Positions 21,311 through 63,114 of a stretch of DNA of 64,000 nt are shown here, in pieces (position 1 is the stretch's first letter; every line of letters starts with the position of its first letter). Location of the stretch: assembly GCA_963082975.1 (NCBI GenBank), contig OY720344.1:4079580-4143579 (forward strand). The letters are read 5' to 3'. The DNA comes from Labia minor. Lineage: Eukaryota > Arthropoda > Insecta > Dermaptera > Spongiphoridae. The notes beneath the pieces are model-generated. The model saw only the letters and a program-made list of their open reading frames with translations. It was not told where the DNA came from and did no database searches. Made by a program: the position numbers and the translations under genes.

Positions 21311-24985
<3,675 letters not shown>

Positions 24986-25076
24986 TCATATTGTACTATT
25001 ATACTAGAATTATAAAAAAGAATCTGGATCTTTTAATTTAGATTTCACTTCTAATTGGCTACATATAAGGCATACA

Positions 25077-25092
25077 GACCCTTTTCAGTGTC
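25077..25092 (+). terminator. Degraded histone 3' stem-loop of H4
   Basis: GACCCTTTTCAGTGTC lies 92 bp after the H4 stop codon. It keeps the TTTC loop and most of the six-pair stem of the histone mRNA 3' signal. It differs from the perfect GGCCCTTTTCAGGGCC of the H2A genes: one pair is changed but still pairs, and one is mismatched (C opposite T). Confidence 0.6.
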
Positions 25093-26095: not shown

Positions 26096-26100
26096 TGAAG

Positions 26101-28440: not shown

Positions 28441-28607
28441 CCCAGAGAAAAGCTCTATACCAGAGGTCGTACACGGCAATTAGGGACTTAGAAAATGTGT
28501 TAAGCGTTCCGGAGGCACCAGAGGCGCTGCTGGCACTAATTCAAATCCGAAAGTTGTTCAGAAAACAACCAACAGATGCCGGACCAGGCTCATTTTTAAA
28601 TTCATGA
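28417..28607 (+). CDS. Orphan protein-like exon fragment
   Basis: Downstream of the hAT coding region, the plus strand reads LALSQRKALYQRSYTAIRDL, then ENVLSVPEAPEALLALIQIR, then KLFRKQPTDAGPGSF, ending in TGA at 28605-28607. The codons are GC-richer than the flanks and the composition is that of a helical soluble protein. A possible acceptor (AATATATCAG) sits at 28416-28425, within the start of this stretch. I do not recognise the protein. It could be an exon of an unknown gene, a captured exon in a transposon, or part of a repeat's first frame. No partner exons were identified. Confidence 0.35.
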
Positions 28608-28869
28608 AATCCATTTGAATCATTTTAAATATTGTGAAGTGTCGTAAACATGTAAACATCTGATTGTCTAACCTAAACAATTTGAAACAATTGTAAATAT
28701 TATATTATCTGACTGATCCAACATCCTCCAATTGCGATCAATATGAATAATAATAAAGTAAGTATAATTAATATAATTTTACTATTATTGATATTGATAA
28801 AGTTATATAACATATGTACATATAAATAAATTTTTGATTTTGCAGTTTTTAGATTGTATTCATAAGAAT
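28608..28869. other. Short AT-rich gap
   Basis: No gene was recognised between the orphan frame and the LINE. An ATG followed by a good donor-like GTAAGT at 28743-28763 was considered as a first exon but not supported. Confidence 0.4.
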
Positions 28870-31437: not shown

Positions 31438-31487
31438 GTGAAATTTGGTGTTAAAACAATACCTTCCTTACTATCGTCGGTCGGTAA
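31415..31487 (-). repeat. Dispersed repeat family A, end fragment
   Basis: ATGTAAAAATCTCCACATGT...TACTATCGTCGGTCGGTAAAA is the terminal part of family A and abuts the 5' end of the LINE. The LINE and this repeat may have inserted into one another. Confidence 0.6.
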
Positions 31488-31957
31488 AAAAGAAGATCCT
31501 TCTGAGTATGGTTCAGAGGAAGATCATTTTTATATATTTTCTAGCCTAAAAGAAGAAAAATTCAAAAAAATTCAGATTTTGAATTTGTAGAGGCAATTTA
31601 AAAAATAATAAATAATAATATAGTTTTCAATGAAAAGATTTTCAAAAAAATAATTCTAGTCTTCTTCATGATAAACTCTTTAAAAGTTTTTAAATTTAAA
31701 AATATACCGCCATTTTAAATAAAATAAATTAATTAAATAACATTTATTTTTTGACATGCATATTTTAAATAATATATATGTATAAATATTAATTTTATAA
31801 ATCATAATTCATTTTCATTTTTTGTTAAAAAATTCAAAAATATTTATTTGAATGATTCTCAATATTTTGAACGCACCCATCATAATTTGAATTTTGTCTG
31901 TTATTTGAATTTTTAAACATTCTCATAAAAATAGTGATTGGTTTTAAAATTTTAAAA

Positions 31958-33180
31958 ATGTCAAAACAAGGTATTTATTTTTTTTTTTAATCATATTACA
32001 GTTTTATAATAAATATCAAAAATTATTTATCAATTTTTTAGGCATTAGACCAGATCTCATTCCATCAGCAATCGACAAAGAGAATAAATCACCATTTGAT
32101 TTAATTAAAACAGGTATTCATATTCAATCCAGAAAATATATATTTTTTCATATAACTAATTTTGATTTTTTTTTATTATATATTAAATAAAATATATTTA
32201 TATGAATGGCAATTTATTTTGATAAAAAAAACTTAACAAATCTTGTATTTTTTTTAACAAAATAAAGTTAAAAATTTTGACTTATAATTAAAGTATAATT
32301 ACCGTCTATATAATTTATTTTTAATGCATTTCGGATGGTTAATTAAATTCTTTTTTTAAAATACAATTAATACTTTTATTTCTAATAATTGGTTTAAATT
32401 TTTTTTCAGATTATTCTCCAAGAATAATAAACCAAAGGTATAGTTTAATTTTTATCTCATTTTATTTTCAATCATTTAACCCTATCATTAAAAAACTTAT
32501 TACACCTATAATGCATTTCCAATAGAATAGTCTTATAAATGATTTTTTTATTTATTTTTTTTTATAAATGCATGTTATAATTATAATATCAAAAAACAAT
32601 AAACTGTTTCAGTTATGACTATTCTTCTGAAGGCAGAAATTATTTATATGAAGAATCAAAAATAATTGCTAGAAGAAAAGAGGAAAAATTAAAGGTGATT
32701 TTACAAGAAGAAAAGAAAGCCCGTGAATTTAAAGCCAAGTCAGTGCCAAAGTGGGTTGGACTACTACCTTATAAAACAGAAGATAAGTTACGTGAAAATA
32801 AACCATCATCCCCATTCAAAGCCCAAAAAATACCTCAATCCTTGCGTATCCCATTTATGCCACAGCATGTGAATAAATTTACTCAGCCAAAATCACCAAA
32901 ATTTGCAACGGAAAGAAGATTAGAAGAACGGGAGGAATTTGAAAATGTAAAACGTCACAGGGAAATGCAATTAGAACAGGCAAAACTGGAGGCTGAAAAG
33001 TTGGAAAAACAATTAAATGAAGAGGAAATTCAAAGAATTAGAAAAAATGCTCAATTTCATGCTAAACCAATGCCAGCTTATAAAGAATTCCATATTAAAA
33101 AATCGGTTAAACCTTTGACTGTTCCAAAAAGCCCCAGTTTATCAACATCAAGTCTTGGACGATCTCCTTATAAAGAATGA
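31958..33180 (+). CDS. TPX2/mei-38-like microtubule protein, left copy
   Basis: The four exons are 31958-31970, 32042-32113, 32410-32437 and 32613-33180, joined in frame to give 226 residues starting MSKQGIRPDLIPSA. The N-terminal half is polar with short SP motifs. A charged coiled-coil segment (residues about 130-185) is rich in Glu, Arg and Lys. The C-terminus contains FHAKPMPAYKEFHIKKSVKP followed by LTVPKSPSL, which resembles the TPX2-type (mei-38-like) C-terminal motif of spindle microtubule proteins. On that basis a role in spindle or microtubule binding is inferred, with moderate certainty. It is tail-to-tail with H2A. The right-arm copy at 50658-51879 encodes the same protein. Confidence 0.75.
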
Positions 33181-34264
33181 ATTGAAGTCTAAAAGAAAAA
33201 AGGGTTATTTTGATTCATTTTTCCAGTGATCTTTTAAAATAAATTAAATGTGTAGGGTATGTATATATATATATATAAATATATAAATATTGAAATATTA
33301 TATCGTTTTTTAAAAAAAAAAAATTGTACAATTGAAATAAAATATAAATAAACAAAAAAGGTAGATAATTTTTCATAATCCTAGTGTTTTTATTTTATTC
33401 TTTTTTATAACATAATTCCCCGTTTAGATGCTATTTAACTGAAAATTTTTCAAAACGATGAGTCTTTTTATAAACCGATTTTCACAATAAACTAAAGAGT
33501 ATAATGAGAAAAAAAAGAAAGCTAATTGGATTAGATTTTTAAGTAATTTTTTTTTTTTTTATAATATAATATAATTTAATGTGATTGAAAATAAATAATT
33601 TGAACGCCTTAAAATTTGATCTGAAGCTGTTATTATAAAATCTATTCTTAGATATTATATTTGGACAAAAAAAGAATAATACCTAGAAATCTATTCCTTA
33701 GCACGAATGGGTATATAAAAAGAGATTATTAAAATTAATTATATTTTTAACAGAAAAACTCCTCTTTATCTTCTCCAATGTCCAATCACATGGATACTAA
33801 TAAACCAACAAGGATTAAAAGATCCCTAAACAATAAATGTTGATCGATTCTAAAAAGATCACAGACCATCCGAAAATATTAATCATTGCTGATAGGAGGA
33901 TTGAATTTTCTTTAAAAAAAACATGTTAAATTTTGTAGAATAGAAAATTTTAACTTGGATCAATAGAAATTTCTGTAAATTATACTCGTATATATAATAT
34001 ATATATATACATATATTATATGATAAATAAAATAGGATATTAGATTTCGAATAATACTTTAATGTATTTTTATTAAATAATAAAATTATAATTAAAATAT
34101 ACATATTGAATTCTAATTAATATCTTATATTTATGTGATCAAGAATATCGAAATAAAATAAAGGCAAAGATTTATTTCGCGAGTGACCCTTTATGTGAAT
34201 AACGGAAAAAGAACAGGAAAATATAAAAAATATCTTGTTTAATCAAAATGTATTTGTTTTGGGT
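33181..34264. other. Convergent intergenic DNA in left arm
   Basis: About 1.1 kb of AT-rich DNA lies between the TPX2-like stop codon and the H2A 3' stem-loop. An ATG frame at 33883-34104 is low-complexity (Tyr/Ile/Asn-rich) and mirrored in the other arm; it is not considered a gene. Confidence 0.6.
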
Positions 34265-34280
34265 GGCCCTGAAAAGGGCC
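34265..34280 (-). terminator. Histone 3' stem-loop of left H2A
   Basis: On the minus strand the sequence is GGCCCTTTTCAGGGCC, a perfect six-pair stem with a TTTC loop, followed by ACCC. It is the binding site of stem-loop binding protein on replication-dependent histone mRNA and lies about 100 bp after the stop codon. Confidence 0.92.
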
Positions 34281-34378
34281 GTTTTAAAACGAAAAATTAA
34301 ACAAAAGAAAGTGAAATGATGAAAGAAAATAAATAAATTTCTAGGAAAAAATGATAGAGAAAAATAAAGTAAGTGTGT

Positions 34379-34774
<396 letters not shown>

Positions 34775-34842
34775 TCAATTTCAATATGTCAATATAAAGA
34801 GAACACACTCGAACGAATGAGAGATTTGTCTAGAAATTTACT

Positions 34843-34876
34843 TTTTATACTCGTTTAAAACTCGCCATCTCATTGG
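34843..34876 (-). promoter_or_regulatory. Left H2A promoter (TATA and CCAAT boxes)
   Basis: On the minus strand CCAAT (34872-34876) is followed by TATAAAA (34843-34849), about 90 bp before the start codon. The order and spacing fit a replication-dependent histone promoter. Confidence 0.7.
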
Positions 34877-35164
34877 TTGTTGAAACGATCAATTCTTATC
34901 ATCTCTTTTAAATTGAAATTTAAATATAATAATCAAATATACTTATATTAGAAATATTATTATTATCATTTAATTAATATAAGTTTTAAAAATATTCTTC
35001 ATAATATTATATTAATTAAAAATGGATAATGAATTTTTAACTCGCAAGGCTATTGGTCACATAGTATCGCCATCTATAAGCTGTTTTCAAATAAATTGAA
35101 ATCTGTTTTCTGGCTTATTTTATTTAAGTGTAAATTTTTATTGATTTATTAAAATTTCACCAAT

Positions 35165-35740
35165 TATTATATTTAAGTCGTGCGTAATCTAATACTTGAA
35201 TTTTTGTGCCATATTGGATTCCGTTCGATTCTTCCACAATTTATACAATCACATATTCCAGTACTAAATTAATAAAATTGTTGAATACGCGTTTCCTTGT
35301 TTTAACCCAGGCCTGGCCAACCCGCGGCCTACCGTGAAAAATTGTGCGGCCCGCTAGTTAACTTTATATTTCTTTTGTAACTTTCATTTCTCGTCTGTAT
35401 ATTCAAAAACATAGACATCACGTTCTTCGCTAACTGATATTAATTTAGAAAATCAACTAATATGTGCAATATTAAACATAAATGTAGATTTAAAAAAGTT
35501 AAGTTAAAAAAAAGAAAAACAAATTTCACATTAGATACGACTCCAAATTTAATTGAAACAATAAAGAATTTATTAAGAAATTACTTATTTTATTTCTTTA
35601 ACATTTCTAAAAGCACGTTTCCCTAAAATGCGGCCCCTGTAGCATTGCTCCTAATCAAAGATCCCCATGGAGTCATTTGGGTTGACCAGGCCTGTTTTAA
35701 CCCATTCAGAATTTCGAAAGTTTCTAATAATTAATATTTT
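35165..35740 (-). mobile_element. LINE-A fragment 5, interrupted by a hAT MITE
   Basis: DNA at 35165-35307 (TTAAGTCGTGCGTAATCTAA, CACATATTCCAGTACTAAAT, CCTTGTTTTAACCCA) matches 37680-37830 of fragment 6. It covers the YADD to GDALSP part of the reverse transcriptase in decayed form. It begins about 70 bp inside the left arm's inner edge. A 387 bp MITE sits within it. Confidence 0.7.
35308..35694. mobile_element. hAT-type MITE with 8-bp target duplication
   Basis: Inverted ends CAGGCCTGGCCAACCCGCGG and GGGTTGACCAGGCCTG are flanked by a perfect 8-bp duplication, TTTTAACC, at 35300-35307 and 35695-35702. The interior is non-coding. The GCGGCC blocks near both ends resemble hAT subterminal motifs. 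It inserted into a LINE-A fragment. Confidence 0.82.
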
Positions 35741-36132
35741 TGCTTATATCATTATAAGTAATTTATTGAAATAAAATATAGATAATAAATTTTTTTCTTT
35801 TTCTATTCTGGGATCAGTGAATAAAATAAATGAACATAGATTTATTATTAAGAATTTTAAAATGCTGGTTTTTTTAAAAACTTTTTTATTCATGTTTATA
35901 TAAAATATTTAAAAATATTATGAGATAATCATAGAATTAAATTAATCAAATATGCTGAGAAGTGAACCTTTTTTTCGATTGTTTATATGTGCCTAAAAGA
36001 AAAATGAAAAGAAAAATATTTATATAGAATAAAATTAATAACAGATAATGTGTTTAAGAAATTTCAGCATATTTTTAACAATAATAAATTTGATTTTAAT
36101 TTATTTTTTTAATGTGTTGACCTTTATTTACT
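35741..36132. other. Intergenic DNA downstream of HPF1
   Basis: AT-rich DNA with no recognised feature. It should hold the HPF1 3' untranslated region and polyadenylation site. Confidence 0.45.
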
Positions 36133-39100
36133 TTATCGAAATATTAAACCTACTTTACTAATTTGAGAAAATTCTTCTCTTTGAAGTAAATTATATGAAT
36201 TTGTAAGAAATTGTAATGAAGTTTCATTTAAATCTTCACAACCAAATGAAAATAAATTGATTCCCAATTCTAGGCCAGTTCCAAAGTCACATTCGTCAAT
36301 TGCAATGTTAGTTGCTGTTAAAAGCATTTGTAAATCATTAAATCTTGCTGTTTTTTCTTCAGGTGTTGTTGCATTCTTTATTTTAGTTAACATTTCTCTT
36401 AATTTTTCTAAAAATTAATATTAATTATTTAATAATATTATTAATCAATGTTAAATATCATTTGACTTAAAATAATAAATTCTATACTTTCAGTTTCCAT
36501 CAATGGTCGATATCCAAGTTCTGTTTCTTTATTTACAGGAACAACGATTCCTGCTTGATGAAAAGTCCGTGAGACTACTAAACGTTTTCTCTTTAACATT
36601 AACGAAGATGACTCTTCTAAAGAAATATTATGCTCAGCAGCCCAATCTTGTAGTTTTTTTTGAATTCGATTTTGAGCCATTTTTTTAAATGGATCCGTTT
36701 TTTTTGATAATCTATTTATAATCATACTAAAATTGAATTGAATAACTTGACTTTATAATTCATATCATCTTACAAATAAAAAAAATGTAATGAGTTTATT
36801 TTGAAAAAGGAGCACATTCGATTAAAATCGTTATACTATATAAAGGTTAATTCAAACTTTTTAATATAAACTACCAAATATACTTACTTGACTGCACTAA
36901 AAATATTAGGTCCAATAGGTTTAATTATACAATCCTTTGCTGATTCGTTTTCAGCAACGAAACAAGGAATTTCTTTAGGATCATCCCTAAAATATCCTAA
37001 ATGTTGTTCAAATTTTTTATTTCCAATTAATATCGTCTAAAAAATTGAAATAAATCGTCTATTATATAATATATATATATATATAATATACATTTTTCAA
37101 ACTTATTCACTTGATTATCAATATGTACACTGGTAAATTAATAGCTAAACTATTTTATTATTTTGAGATAAATACAATATAAAATATGAATTATACTAAA
37201 ATTAATTTTGTTACTTATATATATGTATTAATCATTAATATCTATCTCTGTGGCTCTACGGAACTCAAAAGTTCTTGGCCGCTATTCTCAAATAATCTAA
37301 ATCTACTCTCGTCACCTAAAGTCATAGACCATGCCTCACACCCATATAATACAACCGGTAAAATAATTGTTTTATATATTTTAATTTTTATCCCCTTTGA
37401 TAATAATTTTGACGTGATAAGCCCATTTATTGAATAACAGGCGTTTCCTGATTGTAACCTCGCTTTAAACTCATCTCGAATATTATTATCTTTTGTTATC
37501 ACAGAACCTAAGTATTAAAATTTTTCTACATTTTTAAATTCTATATTTTGTATGTTAAGATTTTGTGTGTTAATACTATTCCTTTCTGTTACTAAATACT
37601 TTGTCCAATCCCACCTCTTTTCCTGCTTAAATTAATTTTTCTACGCTATCTTTAATTACAATTGCCGAATCTCCTATTATATTCAAGTCGTCTGCGTAAC
37701 CTAATACTTGAATTTTTTTGTTTAATTCGATTCCGTTTGACCTCTCCCCAATTTGTCTAATTACATATTCCAGAACTAAATTAAATAAAATTGGTGATAA
37801 TGCGTCTCCTTGTTTTAACCCATTCCTATTAATCATTAATAGAAATATATTAATCAAATAAAATTCGAAATTTCTTTATTAAGAAAAATATTTGTAAAAT
37901 TTTGATAAAATATTTTTTTTTACATATACAATTTATTTTATTTTATTTTTTTCAAAATTTTCGTAAAATATCCTATTAAAAGTAAAAATAACCAAACTTG
38001 TCTTCTACAGATGTAGTAACATATCACCACTTCTAACATTTCAACAAACTTACATGATTCTTTCTATAAATTCACTATTAATTAATTTTAAAGCTTTTTT
38101 TTAAATTGGACCGACTATAATATTTTATAATCATTTCATAAAATGTCTCAGCAATATGATTTATCTCAAGTACAAAAAGATTTTTTAGATATTGTAAGAA
38201 AATGAAAGGTCATAATTCTATTAAAGAATTAATAAAATGGATTTCTTGTAGTTGGAATTTTGCAAGCTGATGCTACTATTCTTATCGTTAAATTGTTAAA
38301 TCTTTTTATTAATTTTTTTCAAGTAAATATTTTTCATTTTAGCTTTTAAATAAATAACATTACTTGAAATTCTGCTGGATCGTAAAAGTATCTCCAATGA
38401 CACAAATATTGTTCAGGTGTAAATTTATTCAAATCTATTCCATTGAAATGGCCAGCAAGAACGTCAAAAGGTCCTGCCAAATATAATCCACAACTTTCTA
38501 AAGCATCTAAATTAATACAAATTTTATTAATCAAGATTTATGTTTATACTTTAGAACAAAAAAAATAATACCTTTTGGTTTTTTATTTGAAATACTTTTA
38601 CAAAATTCCCAAAATTGAAAGAAATCATCTGGCATTGAAACTAAAAATTTTGATTTTATGAATTTTTGACATTCTTCAACATTTTGGTCTTCAATATTTA
38701 TTATCTGATTGATCAAGTTTTCCTTTTGTGCTTTGACTATATTTTCAGCTTCTATTTTTTTATCCTTAGGTTTTTCCTCCTGTTTAATATCATTTAAATT
38801 AGTAATTTCATTATTTGGAGTATCTCTATCAGAATTTGTTGAATTATCCGATAATTTAATTTTTTTAATTTCTTTATTATTACATGGTTCATCCTAAAAT
38901 AAGAAAATATATATATATAGATTAATATAACTAATCCTTATAACCTAAATACAATCTCATTTAATTATTTTTCTTAAAATCAAAATTTCTTCCAATATTC
39001 TAAATAATAGCAAATAAATAGATTATATTTAATGCTGGTAATAGTTCAGCAATTTATTTTGAAATTGGATAACAAAAAATTTAAAATTGTATATGAATTT

Positions 39101-39434
39101 TCATAATTATCTATTAATTAGTAAAATAAATTTTTTTATATTATTCCTTGACTAGTAATAATTAATTAATATTTTTCTGTACTATTTTGTTTCATTTATT
39201 TACTTCCTTTGCTAGTATATGTATATAAAATATCTTTTTAAAATTGCTAAATTTTTCAAATAATTAAAAATAGAAAAATTATTAAATTTTAGTGATTATA
39301 TAATACAGAGAATATAAATAAAAAAAAATATTTACTGATTGACGTTTTTTATAAGAGTGTTTATATTTTTTATGATGTTCTTCATTCACTTGATAACATT
39401 TTGATCCATATTTGCATTCTTTTCGATTATCCAT
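36133..39434 (-). CDS. HPF1: Histone PARylation factor 1 (HPF1)
   Basis: The product completes the PARP1/PARP2 active site and directs ADP-ribosylation to serine at DNA breaks in the nucleus. Exons in transcript order are 39336-39434, 38572-38893, 38364-38506, 36888-37036, 36488-36726 and 36133-36407, all in phase, giving 408 residues. Residues 1-33 form a PBZ-type zinc finger (CKYGSKCYQVNEEHHKKYKH). A low-complexity linker follows, then the HPF1 fold: PDDFFQFWEFC, YLAGPFDVLAGHF, HWRYFYDPAEFQ, HLGYFRDDPKEIPCFVAENE, SRTFHQAGIVVPVNKE and IDECDFGTGLELGINLFSFG. The DE of DECD fits the catalytic Glu (human Glu284), so it looks functional. Intron 3 (37037-38363) contains a LINE-A fragment and a piece of the neighbouring methyltransferase gene. 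It is divergent from NPRL3. Confidence 0.93.
37240..37840 (-). mobile_element. LINE-A fragment 6 in HPF1 intron 3
   Basis: The minus strand encodes GLKQGDALSPILFNLVLEYV and VLGYADDLNIIGDS, the polymerase motif with catalytic YADD. After a deletion of the middle part it continues with IYKTIILPVVLYGCEAWSMT and GDESRFRLFEN. It lies in the same orientation as HPF1. It is the best-preserved LINE-A piece but truncated at the 5' end. Confidence 0.82.
37935..38262 (+). pseudogene. Decayed copy of methyltransferase promoter and exon 1
   Basis: This segment matches the reverse complement of about 48433-48740: the 5' flank (TAAAAATAACCAAACTTGTC, CACCACTTCTAACATTTCAA, TGGACCGACTATAATATTTT) and the first exon, starting ATGTCTCAGCAATATGATTT at 38143. 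It shows a roughly 40 bp deletion between two CTTGTC motifs, an insertion before GGACCGAC and a frameshift in the exon, so it is non-functional. Similarity stops at the end of exon 1 (GGAATTTTG). It sits inside HPF1 intron 3 on the opposite strand. Its start corresponds almost exactly to the point where arm homology ends in the right copy. Confidence 0.85.
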
Positions 39435-40368
39435 TTAAGAAAAAATATTAAATAATGCTATAAAATAATTAATATTATAAATTTAAAATTTATTTTAATA
39501 TTTATTAATTTATTTTTAGAACAATAATTGTAATGTTCTTAGTATATTTTTTTTACAAGGCAACACACAAAAATCTGTCTAAATAAATCAAAATAAAATC
39601 CTAACCTTCCAAGCTAAAATACGACGTTTATTTATTGATATGATAATTAGTGAGAGGAGAATTGAATGGCCATGGGGTGTGCTTGCAAAGTCAAAAGTTT
39701 GACAGTTATAATTAAAAATTATTTTTAGAAATAACGATTAATAAAACATCTTTTACAATTACTAATTATTTTTTAATTGTTTTTTTTAATAATGAACAAA
39801 TGTACATATATATATCCATATTTAAATGTCAAAAAAAAATATTTTAAACTCAATTTCCATCTATGTAAATATTTACTTAAGTAATCTATTTAAAATTCAA
39901 TATTTGATAAGTATATAATTATGACTTAACAAATATAAGATATTTTTGGTTAGAATAAAACATTATTGTGATTCTAGTGGACAAGTTATTTTAGTTTAAT
40001 GTTCGAGAGAATTTGTTTTACGTTAATTAATTTAAAATTTAATAATAATATTGAAATCATTGATTTGGTTATATAAGGTAAATATATATTTAAAAAAAAA
40101 TAATTAAAATTACACTATTATAGAGATTAATGAAGCAATATAATATATTGTTAAGAAAAAAAATTATATAATATATATATATATTATATAGGTTCATAAT
40201 AATTGAAAAATTAAAAAGCAATAAATCGTGGATAGAATGAATCAAATTAGGCCTTATCGGAAAGTTCTGAATTTAGCTCATATTTACCACGATAATAATA
40301 TATTTTATATATTTAAATAATTTAAGAATTTATTAATTTTTTATTTTCTCTATTACAGCTTAAATATA
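39435..40368. promoter_or_regulatory. Divergent HPF1/NPRL3 intergenic region
   Basis: 934 bp separate the two start codons, and the region should hold both promoters and 5' untranslated DNA. It is AT-rich. A GC-richer block near 39590-39700 (CTTCCAAGCTAAAATACGAC, ATGGCCATGGGGTGTGCTTG) is the likeliest HPF1-side core. I see no clear TATA box. Confidence 0.45.
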
Positions 40369-43286
40369 ATGGATTCTAATCCATTAAGTGTAATTTTAGT
40401 GAAAAGTGATAGTAAAGGAGATCGTCTTCTATTTCGTTATCCTTTTATTACAGAAATACGATCTGAACAATCCGGATTGAATAAAAGAAAAAATCCGTAT
40501 GCCTTAATCGTTACAGAGGATTTATTACAAAGTCCACCACCTCAAACATCAAATATTAATATTAAAGGACAATTAACAGGCTTTGCAGATGATGTTTTAT
40601 CAACGTTATTTGCTGTTAAACAAGAATTATGTGAAAGAAAATTTGAATTAAAAGTTAATGATGTTAGGTTTGTTGGACATCCAACATTATTAAATTCAAG
40701 TAATTATTAAATTTCATTGTAAATCTTATTTTTTTCATTTATTCATAATTCTAAATTCATGTACTTCAGTAACAACTGGAAGATTTCCTAATTATTAATA
40801 TATTAGAATTTAATCCAATTTTTTTTACTTTGAAAAATTTTTATTTATTGTCGTTTGTTTTAACAATTTAAATTTGTTTAATTATTAATTCAAAAATTCA
40901 ATTATCCATTTTTATACAATTTCTATTTTATTTGATTAAATATATTTTTTACTAATTCGTTCTTACTTAAACATTAATTCGAATTTTAATTCAAAATTTA
41001 TAGCTCGCCATCCTACAAATAATAAAGAGAGTCAGGGAATGATTCTTTTGCATATTGTTTTTGCACTACACGCTACTGCCAGTCATTCTATTGTGAAATG
41101 TTATTATGATTTAAGTAAACGGCTTGGTGTTGCATTGCGACATGAAGAAAGACGTTGTGGCTATGTTTCGAAGGAAATTAAATTAATGGTGACGGCTCAT
41201 GATGAAGTTTCTGCCAGGTATAATTTCTTTTTAATATTAATAGAAATTAAATAATAATATAATAGAATAGAATAGAAATTGTGATATTGAACTATTTTAA
41301 ATTATGTTTTCTAGACCTGAAGATGGAACCTCTGAAGGAGTTGATTCACCTTTTGATTTAATTCTTCGAAGAAGCACTCTTGCAAGAAATCTTAAAATAG
41401 TATATAATGAATTAATTGGGTCTGGATTAATCCATGTGAGAATCAATAAATGGATTGAAATTAGTTTTTGCCTACCACAAAAAGTACATCAATTTCATAA
41501 AAAAGATTTTATCGTAACTCCCGAAACTATAAAAAAGTAAAATACTATTCTCTAAGCAATAATAAAGAAATATCAATTTAATATTTTAAATTTACATAAT
41601 TCTAGATGTTTACAAGCATTAAGGCCATATCATGGTCTACTCTTATTAGTTGAACCTAATGAGCTGCTCAATTTTTTCCCACCTGATTCATCACCAGCAT
41701 TAGTCCGTTTGGTTCGAATTTATACCCCACTTAAAAGTTTACAAACTTTATCAATGGATGCTGATTTAACTTTATCTCAGGTTTGAATGTGTTTTATTAT
41801 TCTTATTTATATTTTAAATACATATTCAATTATGAGCATTAAAATAATCTACAAAATTTCAATTTTACACATTTGATTTTAGGTATTTCATTTGGCCGGT
41901 CATCTTCTTTATTTAGCTAAAGCTACTGTAATTTATCCACTGTGTGAAAGTAATGTATATGTAATAGCACCTGATGCACAAATTGATATTCATTCACCAC
42001 TTGTGGAACGTTTTTCTGAACAGTTTCCTGGAATGTCTCTTCTTCAGGTAAACATTTTCAATACAATCATTATTATAACAAATTTTTATATTTTGAACTA
42101 TCAAAATTATCATAGTGGTAACATTTCTTTTAGGTTTTATCTGAATTTTCTCTTCCCACATCAATTGGACAAAAATTTAATCCAATGCATTATCCTGAAC
42201 AACAACAACAATTAGTTCAAATGATTGTTTGGATGTTACAACATCATCTTCTTTTGCAATTGCATACTTATATATATTTTGTGTCAACTAGTAATGGGCC
42301 TCGCTTTTCACTGGTTCAAACAAATGTGATAAATTTATATTAAGAATTTTAAACAAATAAATAGATAATATTTATCTTTTTAGCATTCTAGTATACGTTC
42401 AAACTTACATTTACATTCAAATCAATCTGCTCTTTCTAATATATTAAATATATCTACAACCCCTAAAGAAACTATCGGAAGTTATCAAAGTAATTCTGAA
42501 GATACATGTTTATTGCCCAACACTGCTGCTAGTGAAAGTGATTTAAGTTCAACACTTAGTGATGAGGGTGCCTCAAAACCAACACCAAATAATATTTTAC
42601 AATTTGGATCATTGCCTTCAACTGATACAGAAGTTGGTGGACCCTTTATAAATAGTATAGAGGAGGAGAAAACGAGTCTTAAAAATTCATGTAAGTTTTT
42701 TATTTTTATAATGATTTATATAAATCTTTAAATTTTAAAATTATATATATATGTATATATATAAATATTTTAAACAAAAAATTATATAAATATATTAAAC
42801 ATATAATGTATAAAATTTTTTCAATCAAAATTAATAGATTATAAAATAAATATATACTGAATTGTAAAAAGATTTATGTCAGATAATTAGCACAATTTTC
42901 ACATAAAACTATAATCTATATTTATCTAATCATTCTATTATTTATTTAATATCTATTTATTTCAGAAATTTTATTATTAATAGATCATAATTTTATAATT
43001 TATAGGTTTTAGTTTATTACCTGAAGATTTTTTGGCTGATTTCACCGATGAAGAAAGAGCCGCAATATTTCGTGTTCCTGCAGCTTCTAATCCTGAAGAT
43101 TTAGGATTACTAGTTAGATTATGTAGAAATGGTTATTTACAGGGAAGTCATCATCTTGAAGAAATAATGTATCTTGAAAATTTGCGTCGATCTCAATTAT
43201 TACAACTTTTAGATAAATTTCGAGATATATTAATAACTTGCGAAACAGAAGACCCATCAATAGCTGTATTTTATAGTCAGTCGTGA
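40369..43286 (+). CDS. NPRL3: NPRL3, GATOR1 complex subunit
   Basis: NPRL3 forms GATOR1 with NPRL2 and DEPDC5, which acts as a GAP for Rag GTPases at the lysosome and shuts off TORC1 when amino acids are scarce. Exons are 40369-40699, 41004-41217, 41315-41536, 41606-41780, 41883-42047, 42134-42325, 42384-42690 and 43006-43286, in phase, giving 628 residues (human about 570). Family landmarks in order are [120 protein letters not shown] and [20 protein letters not shown]. The extra length is mainly a Ser/Thr-rich linker in exon 7. It looks complete and functional. Confidence 0.95.
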
Positions 43287-44071
43287 TTTATTTTTTTTGT
43301 TTTCTCAAATTTTTACTTATATATAAAAATAAAATATATATTTTTTTAATTATATCTATTGTAATATGTCAACCAACTCACTTAAATATAATTACGATCT
43401 GCCTTCCTCGTCTATCACAATTTGGCTATTAAAAACTGAAAATATGAATGTTGGAAAAGAAGTAAAAAAAAAATATACAATTTTTAACATTAAAATATGA
43501 TTACAGAAATATAAAGAAAGTATCTATAAAAAAATATGAATCTTCTTGATCTTAATCTTATTCTTTTTCATCCCAATGATTAATACACAAAAAGATAATA
43601 CCAAAACTCTATTCCTTTCACTTTGATTTTTCGCTCCTTCTCTCTCTCTCTCGCATCCATGGAAAAGACCTTAAGAAAATGAATTTCCATAATGATACAA
43701 CCAAAATATTTAGGCACGAAGGAGGCTCTCCAATAGATGGTGCAGGTTTCCCTGACGAGTCCCAACATGCCACATTATACATATAAAATATATAATATAG
43801 ATTCAATTATTGCTTAAACCTAAATATTATTTATACCGTTGAATAGTACCCTCTTAAACTTCTAATATAATGAGGGGTTTGTTAATGAATAAATTGGCTA
43901 TATGGGCAAATTCTCGAAATTTTATTTAGTAAAAGTAAACAAGAAAAAAAATAAAGAATGCATTAATTACTATATAACTACTATATTCTCCAAATATGTG
44001 ATTTCTGAACAACAAAATAATATATTATAATTATGAAAATAAAATTACTAGTTAATCTAAATATTTTCAAA
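43287..44071. other. Convergent intergenic DNA after NPRL3
   Basis: AT-rich DNA. A GC-richer patch at 43610-43770 (CGCATCCATGGAAAAGACC, AGGAGGCTCTCCAATAGATG) gives short open frames on the minus strand but no known motif. It may be 3' untranslated sequence or an unrecognised repeat. Confidence 0.45.
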
Positions 44072-45236
44072 TTATTGAATTAAAATCTCTTCATTTGATA
44101 AAACAGGAATATCCAAGTTTTCATATATTTCCATTCTAAAAAATATAAAGATAATGAGGGATATAATATAAATCATGTAAAAAAATATAAAATATAAATA
44201 AATAAAAATACTCTTTAATTGGTTGTTCAATAAAAACGATTTCTTCGACTTCTATCATAGATGAGGGTATTTCTTCATGTGAATTATTAATATTGTTATC
44301 ATTCTTATAAATAATATCTTTTTTCCATTTACGTATTGTAGTTAGAGTTGGTAATTTTAATTTAACATGTTCCCGAAGAAAATTATATAATTCGGGAGAT
44401 TTATAGTACATTTTTAAAGCAAGCTCACGTTCTTCAGATCGCCATTGACCTGGATCTATATGCATCAATTGCATTTGCAAAAAAACAAAAGCTTCATCTG
44501 TAAAATAATTTCTTATTTGTTCTAAAAGTTCTTCCCGTGATAATTGACGATTTCTTATCTTTTCATTCTTTTTTTTTAAATGTGAGATTTTTGCACGCAT
44601 TCTATTCATTATTACCGATCTTTTATAATTTTGTATATATATTTTTTGATTATTAAAAGTAGTTTGAGTTGATATGTCTTTATTTGATTTTGAAATTGTT
44701 TGTTTGGCATTTAATTCTGAAAGTTCCTTTTCAATATTGATATATATAAGAGGTGATAAATTTGCACTATATTCATTATTCTGTTTTAATGATTGTATAC
44801 TATTATCTAAAGTAGGAATAGCATAACCATTCAACTTTTGTTTTAATGTATTTACAAAACAATGCGATTCAAAATGTAGTTCACAAACAATTCGTGATGA
44901 TAATTTTTCAGGTGGAAGTTTTCCTAACATAGGACGTTGGCAGTTTATTAGCCATTCAATACATCTGAAATCAAACATTTATTTTTAAGATTTTTTAAAG
45001 AAAAATAAATTGCAATAGAATAGTATTATGCATCAATTATTTTCTATAAATTTATATTACATGATAATTCCTTGTTAAATTAATGATATTATATAAATAT
45101 ATATATTTAACTAAATAATAGCAATTCTTAAATACCTTTGTTTATCTTTAACAGGAAAAGAAAAAAAATGTAATTCAGGATGGGCTGATTTTGATAGCTC
45201 ACACTTCCTAAAAGAACATTTTACTCTACTAGACAT
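44072..45236 (-). CDS. THAP-domain protein with P-element-like helix-turn-helix region
   Basis: Exons in order are 45136-45236, 44212-44964 and 44072-44135, in phase, giving 272 residues. The N-terminus is a THAP zinc finger, a DNA-binding C2CH module: CSFRKC, then RCIEWLINCQRP, then CELHFESHCF and YAIPTL. A Lys-rich coiled coil follows (MNRMRAKISHLKKKNEKIRN). The C-terminal part (WRSEERELALKMYYKSPELY, NFLREHVKLKLPTLTTIRKW) resembles the DNA-binding/dimerisation region N-terminal to the catalytic core in P-element and THAP9 transposases. No catalytic domain follows. It may therefore be a domesticated fragment of a P-element-like transposase, or an ordinary THAP regulator. It is divergent from the FAM177 gene, 258 bp away. 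Confidence 0.8.
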
Positions 45237-45494
45237 TTTTATAAAAATCAATATTCAGTCAAATCGCAGTAGAGATTATTAAATTAATTTTAGAAAATTA
45301 ATAAAATCTTTTCTTAATGTCAAATATAACCGCTTTTTAGGTTATTTGTCAAACGAATAAATAGAAAGGGTAGTTAACCTTAGACAATCGATGACGCATA
45401 TGACAATATATTAAATGTCAAAATTTCATACATTCAAGCATAATAATTTTACAAAATCTCTCTTTACTCTCTTTTTCTAATAAAAAATTTAAAA
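45237..45494. promoter_or_regulatory. Bidirectional promoter, THAP gene / FAM177 gene
   Basis: Only 258 bp separate the two opposite start codons, so a shared promoter is likely. It contains ACCGCTTTTTAGGTTATTTG and AACCTTAGACAATCGATGAC, the latter with an ATCGAT (DREF-like) motif. Confidence 0.55.
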
Positions 45495-46270
45495 ATGAAT
45501 AGTGAAACTGAAGATTCAAAGGTGATTGTATAAAAATTGAAAATGAATTAGATATTATTTTGATGTTTTCTCAATTTATTTACTAATATGTATTGTTTTA
45601 GATAAATTCTGAATATAAAATGAGAATTAAAGTTCCTAAAAAAGTTCTTCATTTTAGTGATGGGACCCTTGAAGAATACAGTAGTTCTGAAGATGAAAAA
45701 ATTAAGGAAGATGAAGTGAAAAAAATAAATCCTGTAAATATTTATTTTTTTTAAATTAAATTATTTAAAGTTAAAAATTATTAAAAACTAAATTTTTACT
45801 TTTTAGAAAACACTAGCATGGGGTGCATGGTTCTGGTATCAGAGTTATGAGTTAGGATCTTCTTCTCTTAAAGTATGTGATTATTTAGGTGAATCGTTAG
45901 CAAATTTCTTTGGTATTACCACACCTAAATATAATTTTGAAATTGAGGAATATAATCGCATAAAAAAAGAGGTACTAATCATTTTGATTAAAACTTTTTA
46001 TCATATTACTGTAATTAAAAATATTTATTTTCAAAGAAAATTCAATATATTTTATAAAATGACATACTATTCAAAATCTAACCAATTTTTAAATTCACTC
46101 TTAGTAAATCTATCAAAATAATAAAGAAAAGTAATATTTTAATTTAAATTATTTGTGTATTTATTCAGGAACAAGAGCAAAAGGAACAAGAAGAACTACA
46201 AATGGGTGGTTGGATAATTTCTAAAAAACAGTTAATATCAATGAGCCCTCCGAAAAATGAAGAATTATAA
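45495..46270 (+). CDS. FAM177 family protein
   Basis: The four exons 45495-45521, 45602-45733, 45807-45971 and 46169-46270 are all phase 0, giving 141 residues. The family signature KVLHFSDGTLEEYSSSEDE lies at residues about 22-40. It is followed by LAWGAWFWYQSYELGSSSLK, VCDYLGESLANFFGITTPKY and NFEIEEYNRIKKE, then a Glu/Gln-rich helix. FAM177A1 in vertebrates is reported as a Golgi-associated protein of unclear function; that is family knowledge and not visible here. It is convergent with the methyltransferase gene, with 95 bp between stop codons. Confidence 0.88.
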
Positions 46271-46365
46271 TTATTAAAATTGAGATGCTATTATTAATAA
46301 ATTTAAAATAAAAAAATGAAATAGAAACAAATATTTTTATTAAAATAATTTTTATATTATAATAA

Positions 46366-48553
46366 TTAAATAATTTCATATAATTTAACTTCATTTATTT
46401 CATCTTCAATATCTTCTATACCTGTCGCTTCAAGATTATATGGTTTTAACTCTTTTAGCCAATTATTTAATTCTATATCACACTAAAACAAATTAAGATT
46501 ATGAAAATTGTAATTTAAGAATTATTTGTTGCAAAAATAATTTATTAACTTGTAAAACATGCATTTAAAAAAAAAAAATAAAATTTTTGTAAATGATTAT
46601 TATTATTAAATAAAATAATAATGATAAATTATCCGAGTATTTAGCTATTATTTTTTTCAGATTTTATAATTCCATAATTTTGATTAATTTTTATGTTTAA
46701 GTGAGATGGAATTTTAAAATTTGATAAAAATGTGAAAAGTAATATAATGAATAAAAACCAAAAATACGGGATGGAAGAGGACATGATATGCTTTGATGAA
46801 AAAACGTAGATCAGAAAATGACAACTTTCGTGTAAACTAAAATTAATATAAAAATAAAGATTCTAAAATGAATTTAAAAATAAAATAAAAATTATTAAAT
46901 AAAATTAATTTTACAATTATTATTAATTAATTATTAATTATTATTATTACTTCAATGGAAGAAAATGTTTCTTCCAAAGATGGAATTGTTATTAATAGAG
47001 ATTTCTTTTTAAGTGTATTTTTTAAATATTTCCATATTCTAATTTCTGAATTTTTATCAATAAAATATTCAAAGACGTTGTTCAAAATAATAATATCTGC
47101 AGAATTAACAATATCCTTGCATGATGTTACGTCAGCTTCGATTATTTTAATATTATCCTGAAAAAAGTAAAGTGGTAAATAAAGATTAAGAGAAAATCAT
47201 AATTATTAGGTAATTTTATTTATTTATAGTTTAATTACCTTAAATTTATATTTTTCTATTATATTTCTTTGTAAATCACATAATTCTTTATTCATTTCAA
47301 TTCCAATTATTTGACAACTAGTAGTATTTAATAATGCCTTAACAATAAATAAAGTATAAAAATATAAAATATATACTAAATTAATGTTAATCTTACCCCA
47401 TAAAGTACCACACCAATTCTTGAACCGATATCTAATATAATTTTATTTTCAAGTGGTGGAAGAAGTGCTTTAAAAATAAAATTAATTCTATTTTTTGATA
47501 TAGAATGCGAAATAAATGCTAAAAATAATCATAATAAAAATTCATAATTGAATTGTCAAAGAGAGTATTGTTAACTGATGAGATAGTCAAACTTTTGAAA
47601 TAAATTTAAAAATAATTTAAATTTGTTTCTTTAAAAAATAATTTCTTTAATAACCTTGAAAAAGTATTTAATTTAAAAAAAATTAATATTGTTATTTACT
47701 TAGAGGTTTTGTATTATGACTATCACAATCTACACAATAGTTTCTAGATAATTCGCCTTTTTCACATAATTGATTAATTAAATCCTCTTCATATAAAAAT
47801 GAATCAACATGAATGGTGTGCTTATCAATGTGATTCTAAAATAAATTTAATATTTAATTAAATAAAGAAACAAAACCAAGATAATAATAAAAATAAAGTG
47901 ATGTTTTACCCTTGCAATGATAGCTGATTCTGAAGGCAGTATACCATTTAAAGGCAATTCATTACGTAAATCATTTGCAATTGAATCTAATATATTATCA
48001 TACAAAGATGATGTGGATTCCATATCTATAAAATAATTATTAATATTATTAATAGATAGGAAATAATTTTGGTAATTTATATAAACATATATATTTAGCT
48101 AGGAGTGATTAATGAAAATTATATTTTTTTAATATAATAGGGTATTAAAAAAATGTAATTTTCGGTGAAAATAATTTGAAGTTAAGATTGCTATAATTGT
48201 ATGAAACCATATGAAAATGAGAAAACAAGAAAGAAAAATCATATATTAGATTATTAAAGGATATAATTATAAAAGAGGGAAAATATGAGATAAAACAAAA
48301 AAAAAATGATTTAAGATAGTTGTGAAATATTTTAAAAAAATTTATATTTTATATTATAATATAACAAAAAATAACGAAGAGATATGTTTCACTTATAATC
48401 ATAATAATAATGATATATTGATATATAGATACCAAAATTCCAATTACAAGAAATCCATTTTATTAATTCTTTAATAGAATTATGATCTTTACATTTTCTT
48501 ACAATATCTAAAAAATCTTTTTGTGCTTGGGGTAAATCATATTGCTCAGACAT
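46366..48553 (-). CDS. SAM-dependent methyltransferase-like protein
   Basis: Seven exons, 48433-48553, 47910-48025, 47700-47835, 47397-47518, 47239-47337, 46951-47157 and 46366-46482, join in phase to give 305 residues. Residues 80-125 contain a Cys pair (YCVDCDSH). The Rossmann-type methyltransferase core follows: motif I KIILDIGSRIGVVLYG, the acidic post-I strand IIGIEMNKELC, DNIKIIEADVTSC and the motif IV-like ADIIILNNVFEYF. A short acidic tail ends the protein. The substrate is unknown and I do not recognise a named member. Its 5' flank is shared with the right H2A gene (532 bp apart). A broken copy of exon 1 and its promoter lies in HPF1 intron 3. Confidence 0.85.
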
Positions 48554-49460
<907 letters not shown>

Positions 49461-49558
49461 ACACACTTACTTTATTTTTCTCTATCATTTTTTCCTAGAA
49501 ATTTATTTATTTTCTTTCATCATTTCACTTTCTTTTGTTTAATTTTTCGTTTTAAAAC

Positions 49559-49574
49559 GGCCCTTTTCAGGGCC
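49559..49574 (+). terminator. Histone 3' stem-loop of right H2A
   Basis: GGCCCTTTTCAGGGCC followed by ACCC is a perfect histone mRNA 3' stem-loop about 100 bp after the stop codon, mirrored in the left arm. Confidence 0.92.
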
Positions 49575-50657
49575 ACCCAAAACAAATACATTTTGATTAA
49601 ACAAGATATTTTTTATATTTTCCTGTTCTTTTTCCGTTATTCACATAAAGGGTCACTCGCGAAATAAATCTTTGCCTTTATTTTATTTCGATATTCTTGA
49701 TCACATAAATATAAGATATTAATTAGAATTCAATATGTATATTTTAATTATAATTTTATTATTTAATAAAAATACATTAAAGTATTATTCGAAATCTAAT
49801 ATCCTATTTTATTTATCATATAATATATGTATATATATATATTATATATACGAGTATAATTTACAGAAATTTCTATTGATCCAAGTTAAAATTTTCTATT
49901 CTACAAAATTTAACATGTTTTTTTTAAAGAAAATTCAATCCTCCTATCAGCAATGATTAATATTTTCGGATGGTCTGTGATCTTTTTAGAATCGATCAAC
50001 ATTTATTGTTTAGGGATCTTTTAATCCTTGTTGGTTTATTAGTATCCATGTGATTGGACATTGGAGAAGATAAAGAGGAGTTTTTCTGTTAAAAATATAA
50101 TTAATTTTAATAATCTCTTTTTATATACCCATTCGTGCTAAGGAATAGATTTCTAGGTATTATTCTTTTTTTGTCCAAATATAATATCTAAGAATAGATT
50201 TTATAATAACAGCTTCAGATCAAATTTTAAGGCGTTCAAATTATTTATTTTCAATCACATTAAATTATATTATATTATAAAAAAAAAAAAAATTACTTAA
50301 AAATCTAATCCAATTAGCTTTCTTTTTTTTCTCATTATACTCTTTAGTTTATTGTGAAAATCGGTTTATAAAAAGACTCATCGTTTTGAAAAATTTTCAG
50401 TTAAATAGCATCTAAACGGGGAATTATGTTATAAAAAAGAATAAAATAAAAACACTAGGATTATGAAAAATTATCTACCTTTTTTGTTTATTTATATTTT
50501 ATTTCAATTGTACAATTTTTTTTTTTTAAAAAACGATATAATATTTCAATATTTATATATTATATATATATATATACATACCCTACACATTTAATTTATT
50601 TTAAAAGATCACTGGAAAAATGAATCAAAATAACCCTTTTTTCTTTTAGACTTCAAT
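49575..50657. other. Convergent intergenic DNA in right arm
   Basis: AT-rich DNA mirrored from 33181-34264. No gene was seen; the 49735-49956 frame is low-complexity. Confidence 0.6.
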
Positions 50658-51879
50658 TCATTCTTTATAAGGAGATCGTCCAAGACTTGATGTTGATAAA
50701 CTGGGGCTTTTTGGAACAGTCAAAGGTTTAACCGATTTTTTAATATGGAATTCTTTATAAGCTGGCATTGGTTTAGCATGAAATTGAGCATTTTTTCTAA
50801 TTCTTTGAATTTCCTCTTCATTTAATTGTTTTTCCAACTTTTCAGCCTCCAGTTTTGCCTGTTCTAATTGCATTTCCCTGTGACGTTTTACATTTTCAAA
50901 TTCCTCCCGTTCTTCTAATCTTCTTTCCGTTGCAAATTTTGGTGATTTTGGCTGAGTAAATTTATTCACATGCTGTGGCATAAATGGGATACGCAAGGAT
51001 TGAGGTATTTTTTGGGCTTTGAATGGGGATGATGGTTTATTTTCACGTAACTTATCTTCTGTTTTATAAGGTAGTAGTCCAACCCACTTTGGCACTGACT
51101 TGGCTTTAAATTCACGGGCTTTCTTTTCTTCTTGTAAAATCACCTTTAATTTTTCCTCTTTTCTTCTAGCAATTATTTTTGATTCTTCATATAAATAATT
51201 TCTGCCTTCAGAAGAATAGTCATAACTGAAACAGTTTATTGTTTTTTGATATTATAATTATAACATGCATTTATAAAAAAAAATAAATAAAAAAATCATT
51301 TATAAGACTATTCTATTGGAAATGCATTATAGGTGTAATAAGTTTTTTAATGATAGGGTTAAATGATTGAAAATAAAATGAGATAAAAATTAAACTATAC
51401 CTTTGGTTTATTATTCTTGGAGAATAATCTGAAAAAAAATTTAAACCAATTATTAGAAATAAAAGTATTAATTGTATTTTAAAAAAAGAATTTAATTAAC
51501 CATCCGAAATGCATTAAAAATAAATTATATAGACGGTAATTATACTTTAATTATAAGTCAAAATTTTTAACTTTATTTTGTTAAAAAAAATACAAGATTT
51601 GTTAAGTTTTTTTTATCAAAATAAATTGCCATTCATATAAATATATTTTATTTAATATATAATAAAAAAAATCAAAATTAGTTATATGAAAAAATATATA
51701 TTTTCTGGATTGAATATGAATACCTGTTTTAATTAAATCAAATGGTGATTTATTCTCTTTGTCGATTGCTGATGGAATGAGATCTGGTCTAATGCCTAAA
51801 AAATTGATAAATAATTTTTGATATTTATTATAAAACTGTAATATGATTAAAAAAAAAAATAAATACCTTGTTTTGACAT
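50658..51879 (-). CDS. TPX2/mei-38-like microtubule protein, right copy
   Basis: Same structure as 31958-33180. Exon 1 is at 51867-51879 and exon 4 at 50658-51225; exons 2 and 3 are the mirror of 32042-32113 and 32410-32437, at about 51725-51796 and 51401-51428. The 161 residues of the open frame in exon 4 are identical in both copies. The C-terminal FHAKPMPAYKEFHIKKSVKP motif supports the tentative TPX2-type assignment. It is head-to-head with YPEL5, with about 700 bp between start codons. Confidence 0.75.
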
Positions 51880-52139
51880 TTTTAAAATTTTAAAACCAAT
51901 CACTATTTTTATGAGAATGTTTAAAAATTCAAATAACAGACAAAATTCAAATTATGATGGGTGCGTTCAAAATATTGAGAATCATTCAAATAAATATTTT
52001 TGAATTTTTTAACAAAAAATGAAAATGAATTATGATTTATAAAATTAATATTTATACATATATATTATTTAAAATATGCATGTCAAAAAATAAATGTTAT
52101 TTAATTAATTTATTTTATTTAAAATGGCGGTATATTTTT

Positions 52140-52250
52140 AAATTTAAAAACTTTTAAAGAGTTTATCATGAAGAAGACGAGAATTATTTTTTTGAAATTT
52201 AAAAACTTTTAAAGAGTTTATCATGAAGAAGACTAGAATAATTTTTTTTT
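52140..52250. repeat. 55-bp tandem duplication at outer edge of right arm
   Basis: AATTTAAAAACTTTTAAAGA...TCATGAAGAAGAC occurs twice, starting near 52141 and 52196. The left arm has one copy and aligns with the first. The second copy lies just outside the arm. Confidence 0.8.
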
Positions 52251-52578
52251 CAAAATTTATAAATATAAATGTTTAAGTTGGCAGAATGGATACACGCTCC
52301 ATTATTTGCACTGTTCAGGAACCTGAATGTCAAATCTGTTGACTAGACTAAAATTACATTTGTATCCCATCTTGGAACGTAATAACTGGTAATAACTTTC
52401 CTCCAATAAATTTTTAATTATTATATATCATCAATTTGTCCTACATTGATATACATTTCTTGGTAATATTATTTTTATTATCAAATAATTTAATGTTATA
52501 ATTAAAATATGAAAATATTTTTCTCTAAATATCACTAAATAATCCTTTGTTTCTACATTAATCTTTTAGTTATACAAA

Positions 52579-55500: not shown

Positions 55501-55758
55501 TCTTAAGAATGTTTTCTTTTTCAGTAAATAATTAAATTGTATATATATTTTTTTAGTGAAATACAAGATCGTGTAATGCTAACTGGAAGACATATGGTTC
55601 GAGATGTTTCTTGTAAAAATTGCGATGCTAAATTAGGGTGGATTTATGAATTTGCGACGGAAGAAAATCAACGATACAAAGAAGGAAGAGTTATTTTGGA
55701 ACGAGCTCTTGTTACTGAGAGTGATGGGATTGATGAATATATGGGTGACGACCATTAA
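52579..55758 (+). CDS. YPEL5: Yippee-like 5 (YPEL5)
   Basis: Two exons, 52579-52739 and 55557-55758, give a 120-residue Yippee protein. It starts [20 protein letters not shown], continues [19 protein letters not shown] and ends after a second zinc-binding pair, [17 protein letters not shown]. The two CxxC pairs bind one zinc. The near-identity to vertebrate YPEL5 makes the assignment firm. In mammals YPEL5 binds the CTLH (GID) ubiquitin ligase; the same role is inferred here. The 2.8 kb intron is unusually long for this window and holds a Tc1-like transposon. Confidence 0.95.
52740..53598. other. YPEL5 intron, first part
   Basis: AT-rich intronic DNA upstream of the Tc1-like element, with no recognised feature. 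Confidence 0.5.
53599..55172 (+). mobile_element. Tc1-like transposon in YPEL5 intron
   Basis: Inverted ends CACTCATGGACAAAATTAGA and AATTTTGTACATGAGTG are bordered by TA at 53597-53598 and 55173-55174. Length is 1574 bp, normal for Tc1 elements. Inside, a plus-strand transposase reads [60 protein letters not shown] and [20 protein letters not shown]. In-frame stops and frameshifts are present (for example after LLETRY and before SHVLFTDES), so this copy is inactive. Confidence 0.88.

Positions 55759-63064: not shown

Positions 63065-63114
<50 letters not shown>

What the first reader, a model, noticed from the sequence alone, without database searches (positions are those of the whole stretch)
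31640..52197. Large inverted repeat with near-identical 3.45 kb arms, each carrying H2A and a TPX2-like gene
Paired coordinates sum to 83837-83839 along the arms. Coding and non-coding sections match, with only a few small differences seen by eye. The 13.65 kb spacer holds five unrelated host genes. Non-coding AT-rich DNA would be expected to diverge quickly, so the duplication is very recent, or gene conversion between the arms keeps them equal, or the assembly is wrong. Palindromic pairing that preserves gene pairs is known from sex chromosomes and a few histone loci, but this gene combination is not one I know.
Basis: partly seen in the sequence, partly recalled or inferred. Interest (0 to 1): 0.8.

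Follow-up and report, generated by a model that had tools for sequence, protein, structure and literature searches.

The report
Near-identical inverted H2A–TPX2 gene pair
Two mirror-image 3.45 kb copies of a histone H2A and spindle-protein gene pair flank five other genes in an animal-like genome; a worn piece of neighbouring DNA near one copy suggests that the duplication is old and that the two copies have since overwritten each other, a known process seen here at an unusual gene pair.

Summary
Arms 31640-35093 and 52197-48746 align over 3454 columns with one substitution (19th base of the arm) and two one-base length differences, in a T run and a TA repeat. Each arm holds a complete TPX2-domain gene and a canonical H2A with a histone 3' stem-loop. 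The spacer holds HPF1, NPRL3, a THAP protein, FAM177 and a methyltransferase-like gene.

New here: the right arm's inner neighbour (48745-48433: upstream region and predicted exon 1 of the methyltransferase gene) has a broken inverted copy at 37937-38262, in an HPF1 intron near the left arm. Its homology begins where the arm homology stops, yet 18 of 278 aligned sites differ, with six gaps, against 1 of 3452 in the arms (Fisher p about 5e-20). If one event copied both, the duplication is old and the arms were later made equal, most simply by gene conversion. This is indirect: 2843 bp holding HPF1's last three exons separate relic and left arm, and the relic's far end falls on a predicted splice donor. 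A recent duplication remains possible; an assembly error is unlikely but untested. Ordinary in kind, unusual in genes.

The parts
31640..35093 (+). left arm of the inverted repeat (3454 bp)
   Evidence: self-BLASTN, 99.913% identity to 52197-48746
48746..52197 (-). right arm of the inverted repeat (3452 bp)
31958..33180 (+). TPX2-like gene, left copy: four coding exons, 226 aa, GT/AG introns (splicing read by eye)
   Evidence: Pfam PF06886 E 9.6e-15 on the last exon; phmmer to PDB TPX2 chain 6bjc_T E 1.7e-7; splicing
50658..51879 (-). TPX2-like gene, right copy
   Evidence: mirror of the left copy; long exon ORF; ATG at 51879
34379..34753 (-). canonical histone H2A, left copy, intronless, 124 aa
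   Evidence: 122 of 123 aligned residues identical to PDB 6dzt_C
49086..49460 (+). canonical histone H2A, right copy
   Evidence: same translation as the left copy
34244..34285 (-). histone 3' stem-loop of the left H2A
   Evidence: RF00032, 34.8 bits, gathering score 34
49554..49595 (+). histone 3' stem-loop of the right H2A
   Evidence: RF00032, 34.8 bits
48433..48745 (-). upstream region and predicted exon 1 of the methyltransferase-like gene, abutting the right arm; counterpart of the relic
37937..38262 (+). diverged, frameshifted inverted copy (relic) of 48745-48433, inside an HPF1 intron
   Evidence: 278 aligned sites, 18 mismatches, 6 gaps of 83 columns; 72.3% of 361 columns identical with gaps counted; no other match in the window at E up to 1e-3
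35094..37936 (.). 2843 bp between left arm and relic: hAT-like MITE, HPF1's last three exons, reverse-transcriptase fragments
36136..39434 (-). HPF1 gene in the spacer, apparently intact
   Evidence: Pfam PF10228 hits on four exons, together profile positions 1-251 of 251; ATG at 39434
40369..43283 (+). NPRL3 gene in the spacer (extent approximate)
   Evidence: PF03666 and PF24064
44136..45254 (-). THAP-domain / P-element-HTH gene in the spacer (extent approximate)
   Evidence: PF05485, PF12017; further ORF, not scanned
45602..46118 (+). FAM177 gene in the spacer (extent approximate)
   Evidence: PF14774 E 1.9e-21; upstream ORF, not scanned
46644..48553 (-). methyltransferase-like gene in the spacer (3' end not fixed)
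   Evidence: splice model by eye; Pfam PF13847 E 1.5e-8
52131..52248 (.). direct repeat with 54-bp period across the outer edge of the right arm; the left arm has one unit

Best explanation
A real local inverted duplication of a convergent TPX2-H2A gene pair, together with a stretch of the neighbouring methyltransferase gene, formed some time ago, plausibly as a by-product of an inversion of the 13.65 kb spacer with staggered breaks or template-switching repair. The short copied stretch of the methyltransferase gene, cut off from the left arm by 2.8 kb of other sequence, then decayed, while the 3.45 kb arms kept converting one another and stay all but identical, so that both copies of both genes remain intact. 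Shown: arm identity, open genes in both arms, the relic's position and its higher divergence. Inferred: one common duplicating event, gene conversion as the equalising process, the inversion origin.
For: Arms: 1 substitution in 3452 aligned sites, 1 in about 2393 non-coding sites. Relic against its counterpart: 18 of 278 aligned sites differ (95% interval 3.9-10.0%), 12 of 158 before the ATG and 6 of 120 in the exon; Fisher p 5e-20 against the whole arm, 2e-17 against its non-coding part. The BLAST ends abut on the right (48746 and 48745), and the relic has the orientation and lies on the side expected if arm and relic were copied as one block. In the window it matches only its counterpart (E up to 1e-3). 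Its frame is broken by a one-base gap, while the counterpart exon joins in frame to six further predicted exons with a methyltransferase domain, so the right side is the working one. Mirror-image gene pairs are known to convert one another: Hsp70 and amylase in Drosophila (PMC3924832, passages), Attacin AttA2 (PMC7584159, passages). Staggered breaks leave inverted duplications of originally single-copy DNA at both ends of an inversion (PMC3355041, passages).
Against: The relic is not next to the left arm: 2843 bp with HPF1's last three exons lie between, and I found no simple series of steps from one block copy to this order. The relic's other end is the last base of the predicted exon 1 (48433), and no homology was found past it (159 of 300 shuffles score as high), which hints at an RNA-derived or separate origin. 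No diverged homology lies next to the outer arm ends: two tests gave nothing (109 of 300 and 54 of 100 shuffles as high), a third scored 50 against a largest shuffle of 49 (0 of 60), but its match is an AT-rich stretch at 16720-16825, far from the arm. No GC rise from biased conversion: arm non-coding GC 19.0%, spacer 22.9%. No relatives or population data.
Confidence: 0.58

Rival explanations
1. Very recent inverted duplication: the arms are alike because they are young. The relic in the HPF1 intron is an older, separate copy of the methyltransferase gene's first exon and upstream region.
For: It needs no conversion; one substitution and two repeat-length changes fit a young copy. The relic ends at a predicted splice donor and lies 2843 bp from the left arm with HPF1 exons between, as a separate event could give.
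Against: The relic's start, on the right, coincides with the inner arm boundary; my own rough arithmetic puts two independent ends within 5 bp of each other in a 13.65 kb spacer at about 0.001. It also has the expected orientation and lies near the left arm. Exon 2 does not follow it (reading), so it is no ordinary processed copy.
Confidence: 0.3
2. Assembly artefact: one arm was placed twice, or two haplotypes were joined wrongly.
For: Two of the three differences are in a T run and a TA repeat, as sequencing error would give. No read data were available.
Against: The sequences on the four sides of the two arms differ, the outer edges differ by a 54-bp repeat unit, and a diverged relic of the inner neighbour lies near the left arm. 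Arms of 3.45 kb are shorter than usual long reads (general knowledge).
Confidence: 0.1
3. A sub-question of the best explanation: no inversion took place; one copy of the pair was inserted in reverse near the other by replication template switching, then converted.
For: Same arm and relic evidence. The word TTTTCAAA occurs at both ends of the left arm (read by eye), as microhomology joining could leave.
Against: Such words are common in DNA of 27% GC; gene order in relatives, which would separate this from a staggered-break inversion, could not be seen.
Confidence: 0.3

Closest known systems
Drosophila Hsp70Aa/Ab and Amy-p/Amy-d palindromic gene pairs under ectopic gene conversion (PMC3924832, passages)
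   Same: linked paralogues in mirror orientation, highly alike
   Different: here two unrelated genes per arm with their non-coding DNA, a 13.65 kb spacer with five genes, and no species comparison; for amylase the passage says the pattern is confined to coding sequence
Inverted duplications at inversion breakpoints, D. mojavensis 2h and 2q (PMC3355041, passages)
   Same: [quoted passage not shown] in 2h one side is reduced by deletions
   Different: those copies had diverged enough to be used for dating; these arms are nearly identical, and the ancestral order is unknown
D. subobscura AttA2 inverted duplicates, with a spacer inversion polymorphism and concerted evolution (PMC7584159, passages)
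   Same: inverted duplicates around a spacer, evolving in concert
   Different: an Attacin gene in each copy; concerted evolution shown there by a phylogenetic network and not testable here
Mammalian sex-chromosome palindromes (PMC6790999, listing and start of abstract only)
   Same: gene-bearing inverted repeats kept alike by conversion between arms
   Different: far longer arms (recalled); chromosome type unknown here

Membership tests
Palindromic gene pair homogenised by gene conversion | arms in inverted orientation with near-identical coding and non-coding DNA | tested here: met
Palindromic gene pair homogenised by gene conversion | duplication older than the divergence of the arms suggests | tested here: inconclusive
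   relic 18 of 278 against arms 1 of 3452, but a common origin of relic and arm is inferred
Palindromic gene pair homogenised by gene conversion | paralogues more alike within a species than orthologues between species | not testable with these tools
   no genome held for the window; scans of viral and prokaryote collections gave no relative of use
Inversion with staggered breaks | inverted duplicates of originally single-copy DNA flank the segment | tested here: inconclusive
   the arms flank 35094-48745 and no third copy lies in the window, but single-copy origin could not be checked outside it
Inversion with staggered breaks | segment between the arms is inverted relative to the ancestral order | not testable with these tools
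   no relative available
Replication-dependent histone H2A | intronless H2A with 3' stem-loop | tested here: met
Tandem histone gene cluster | H1, H2A, H2B, H3 and H4 in one repeated unit | tested here: not met
   in this window, reading the ORF lists by eye (at least 100 aa in 29000-55000, 90 aa in 52000-64000, 110 aa in 1-31640), only H2A twice and one H4 were seen; other parts of the genome could not be searched
TPX2 family | TPX2 domain | tested here: met
   PF06886 54.7 bits, cut-off 25
Sex-chromosome palindrome | location on a sex chromosome | not testable with these tools
   organism and chromosome unknown

The most novel reading that the evidence does not exclude
A long-lived mini-palindrome in which continuing conversion between arms is kept by selection for dose or sameness of two cell-cycle genes (histone supply and spindle assembly), and in which the arms let the five-gene spacer flip back and forth.
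Probability: 0.12. Interest if true: 0.6.

Novelty: new member of a known kind. Interest (0 to 1): 0.4.

Why it matters
If right, it is a compact natural test of conversion between arms: a homogenised tract and a copied piece outside it, in one locus, give the equalised and the free divergence side by side. It would also show a histone gene, in a stretch without a tandem cluster, kept in two identical copies with a linked spindle gene. If the arms are simply young, it is an ordinary recent inverted duplication.

Tried and rejected
A transposon insertion as the cause of the 2843-bp gap between left arm and relic: rejected, since that stretch holds HPF1's last three exons, in order with the HPF1 exons beyond the relic; transposon pieces (a hAT-like MITE with an 8-bp target duplication, reverse-transcriptase fragments) only lie within it.

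A tandem duplication by exchange between the two reverse-transcriptase fragments (35165-35309 and 37675-37822): these are about 82% identical, less alike at aligned sites than relic and counterpart, and a search with the HPF1 end found no second copy in the window (only six short hits of 41-54 columns). Dropped.

Arms as a mobile element: by eye, no terminal inverted repeats or target duplications beyond short T-rich words.

Processed copy of the methyltransferase mRNA for the relic: the 3' end lies at a predicted splice donor, but exon 2 does not follow; a partial RNA-derived piece is not excluded.

Left-over arm DNA beside the relic (37836-37936): no signal (64 of 200 shuffles reach the score against the inner 400 bp of the arm, 73 of 200 against the whole arm, 199 of 200 against 35094-35164). 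Continued homology at the outer ends: see evidence against.

Relatives: viral-contig scans for H2A and TPX2 gave none; a prokaryote-genome scan for H2A gave five loci, all in records titled MAG (L001-L005), which I did not study. A paper search for autosomal palindromes returned nothing; those served for comparison only.
Full report
Observation. The window is AT-rich (26.7% GC), and no genome is held for it. Intron-bearing genes, hAT, mariner and LINE remnants, and an H2A identical at 122 of 123 aligned residues to PDB chain 6dzt_C (I recall this as a Drosophila protein) suggest an arthropod, probably an insect; the species is unknown. The claimed inverted repeat is real: 31640-35093 against 52197-48746, 3454 columns, one mismatch and two one-base gaps. 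The only substitution lies at the 19th base of the arm, inside a unit that is doubled (period 54 bp) across the right arm's outer edge; the left base agrees with the outer unit there. The two gaps are in a T run and a TA repeat.

Contents. Each arm carries two complete convergent genes. The TPX2-like gene has four coding exons with GT/AG introns and 226 aa (splicing by eye), a Pfam TPX2 domain and phmmer matches to two PDB TPX2 chains (E 1.7e-7 and 2.3e-6). The H2A is intronless and followed by an Rfam histone stem-loop just above the gathering score (34.8 against 34). A TATAAAAAG word and CCAAT words lie upstream of H2A (read by eye). By coordinates the arm reaches 318 bp before the TPX2 ATG and 340 bp before the H2A ATG, so both promoters may be inside. 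The spacer holds HPF1, NPRL3, a THAP protein, FAM177 and a methyltransferase-like gene.

The relic. On the right it starts at the base next to the arm and covers the upstream region and predicted exon 1 of the methyltransferase gene, whose model reads in frame into six further exons with a methyltransferase domain (splice sites by eye, last exon not fixed). On the left it lies in an HPF1 intron, is frameshifted, and is 2843 bp away from the left arm. It differs from its counterpart at 18 of 278 aligned sites and by six gaps of 83 columns in all; with gaps counted, BLAST gives 72.3% identity over 361 columns. Of the mismatches, 12 of 158 sites are before the ATG and 6 of 120 in the exon. The arms differ at 1 of 3452 sites, or 1 of about 2393 non-coding sites (exon limits there were set by eye and are a few bases off those). 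Fisher p is 5e-20 and 2e-17. Sites are treated as independent, so these values are only a guide. The relic has no other match in the window at E up to 1e-3; its counterpart has one further hit of 33 columns at 23098-23130.

Reading. If relic and left arm were copied in one event, the event is as old as about 6.5% divergence and the arms have been equalised since, most simply by gene conversion. For one event: the ends abut, the orientation fits and the relic lies near the left arm. I put the chance of abutting within 5 bp by accident at roughly 0.001, a figure of my own arithmetic. Against: HPF1's last three exons lie between left arm and relic, and I found no simple path to that order; and the relic's far end is the last base of predicted exon 1, with no homology found beyond (159 of 300 shuffles as good), which an RNA-derived or separate piece would also show. 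I give gene conversion after an old duplication 0.58, a recent duplication 0.30 and an artefact 0.10. How the copy arose (template switching or inversion) is a sub-question that overlaps the first of these.

Origin. [quoted passage not shown] models discussed in PMC7584159, passages). The present layout fits that pattern, with the methyltransferase-H2A junction kept on the right. An H4 gene lies on the left flank at 24671-24985 (phmmer to PDB H4 chains, best E 1.2e-61; its Pfam core-histone score is just under the cut-off). The inversion is not tested, because the order in relatives is unknown.

Comparison with what is known. Mirror-image paralogues that convert one another are known in Drosophila Hsp70 and amylase (PMC3924832, passages) and Attacin (PMC7584159). 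What differs here is the pairing of a histone with a spindle-type gene, the inclusion of non-coding DNA, and the five-gene spacer. Paper searches for histone or TPX2 with inverted repeats, duplication and conversion listed nothing on this gene pair by title or abstract start; 58 of 117 listed-or-held rows were shown (20 of 42, 20 of 24, 10 of 16, 8 of 35), some papers counting twice, and the library lacks most subscription journals. I file it as a new member of a known kind.

Limits. No reads, no relatives, no named organism. Two viral-contig scans and one prokaryote-genome scan found no useful relative. Function of the second copies, and selection for them, are untested.

Noticed in passing
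window 24671-24985 (+): Complete histone H4 gene about 6.7 kb left of the left arm, without an Rfam histone stem-loop within 24600-25600 at E up to 0.1, so perhaps a replication-independent H4.
   Followed up: partly
window 12857-14143: Compact element with inverted ends of 488 and 495 bp at 94.7% identity and ACCGACCGACGA tips; related pieces at 156-548, 16110-16490, 11670-11835, 25833-26097 and 31416-31497.
   Followed up: partly
window 25834-31490: Same tips in opposite orientation enclose a DUF4371/hAT transposase ORF (26236-27993) and LINE pieces (29154-31172), perhaps a full-length parent with a nested LINE; its end lies about 150 bp from the left arm.
   Followed up: partly
window 35308-35694: 387-bp hAT-like MITE with CAGGCCTGGCCAACC tips and 8-bp target duplication TTTTAACC.
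   Followed up: partly
window 52131-52248: Direct repeat with 54-bp period crossing the outer edge of the right arm; only one unit at the left arm.
   Followed up: partly
window 18570-19019 and 53979-54287: Mariner-type (Pfam PF01359) and Tc3-like (PF01498, below the cut-off) transposase fragments.
   Followed up: no
window 58243-61466 (-): HEAT-repeat protein gene on the right flank (HEAT hits at 58863-59177, weak at 58243-58674, none at 61035-61466), not named; that these ORFs are one gene is a guess.
   Followed up: no
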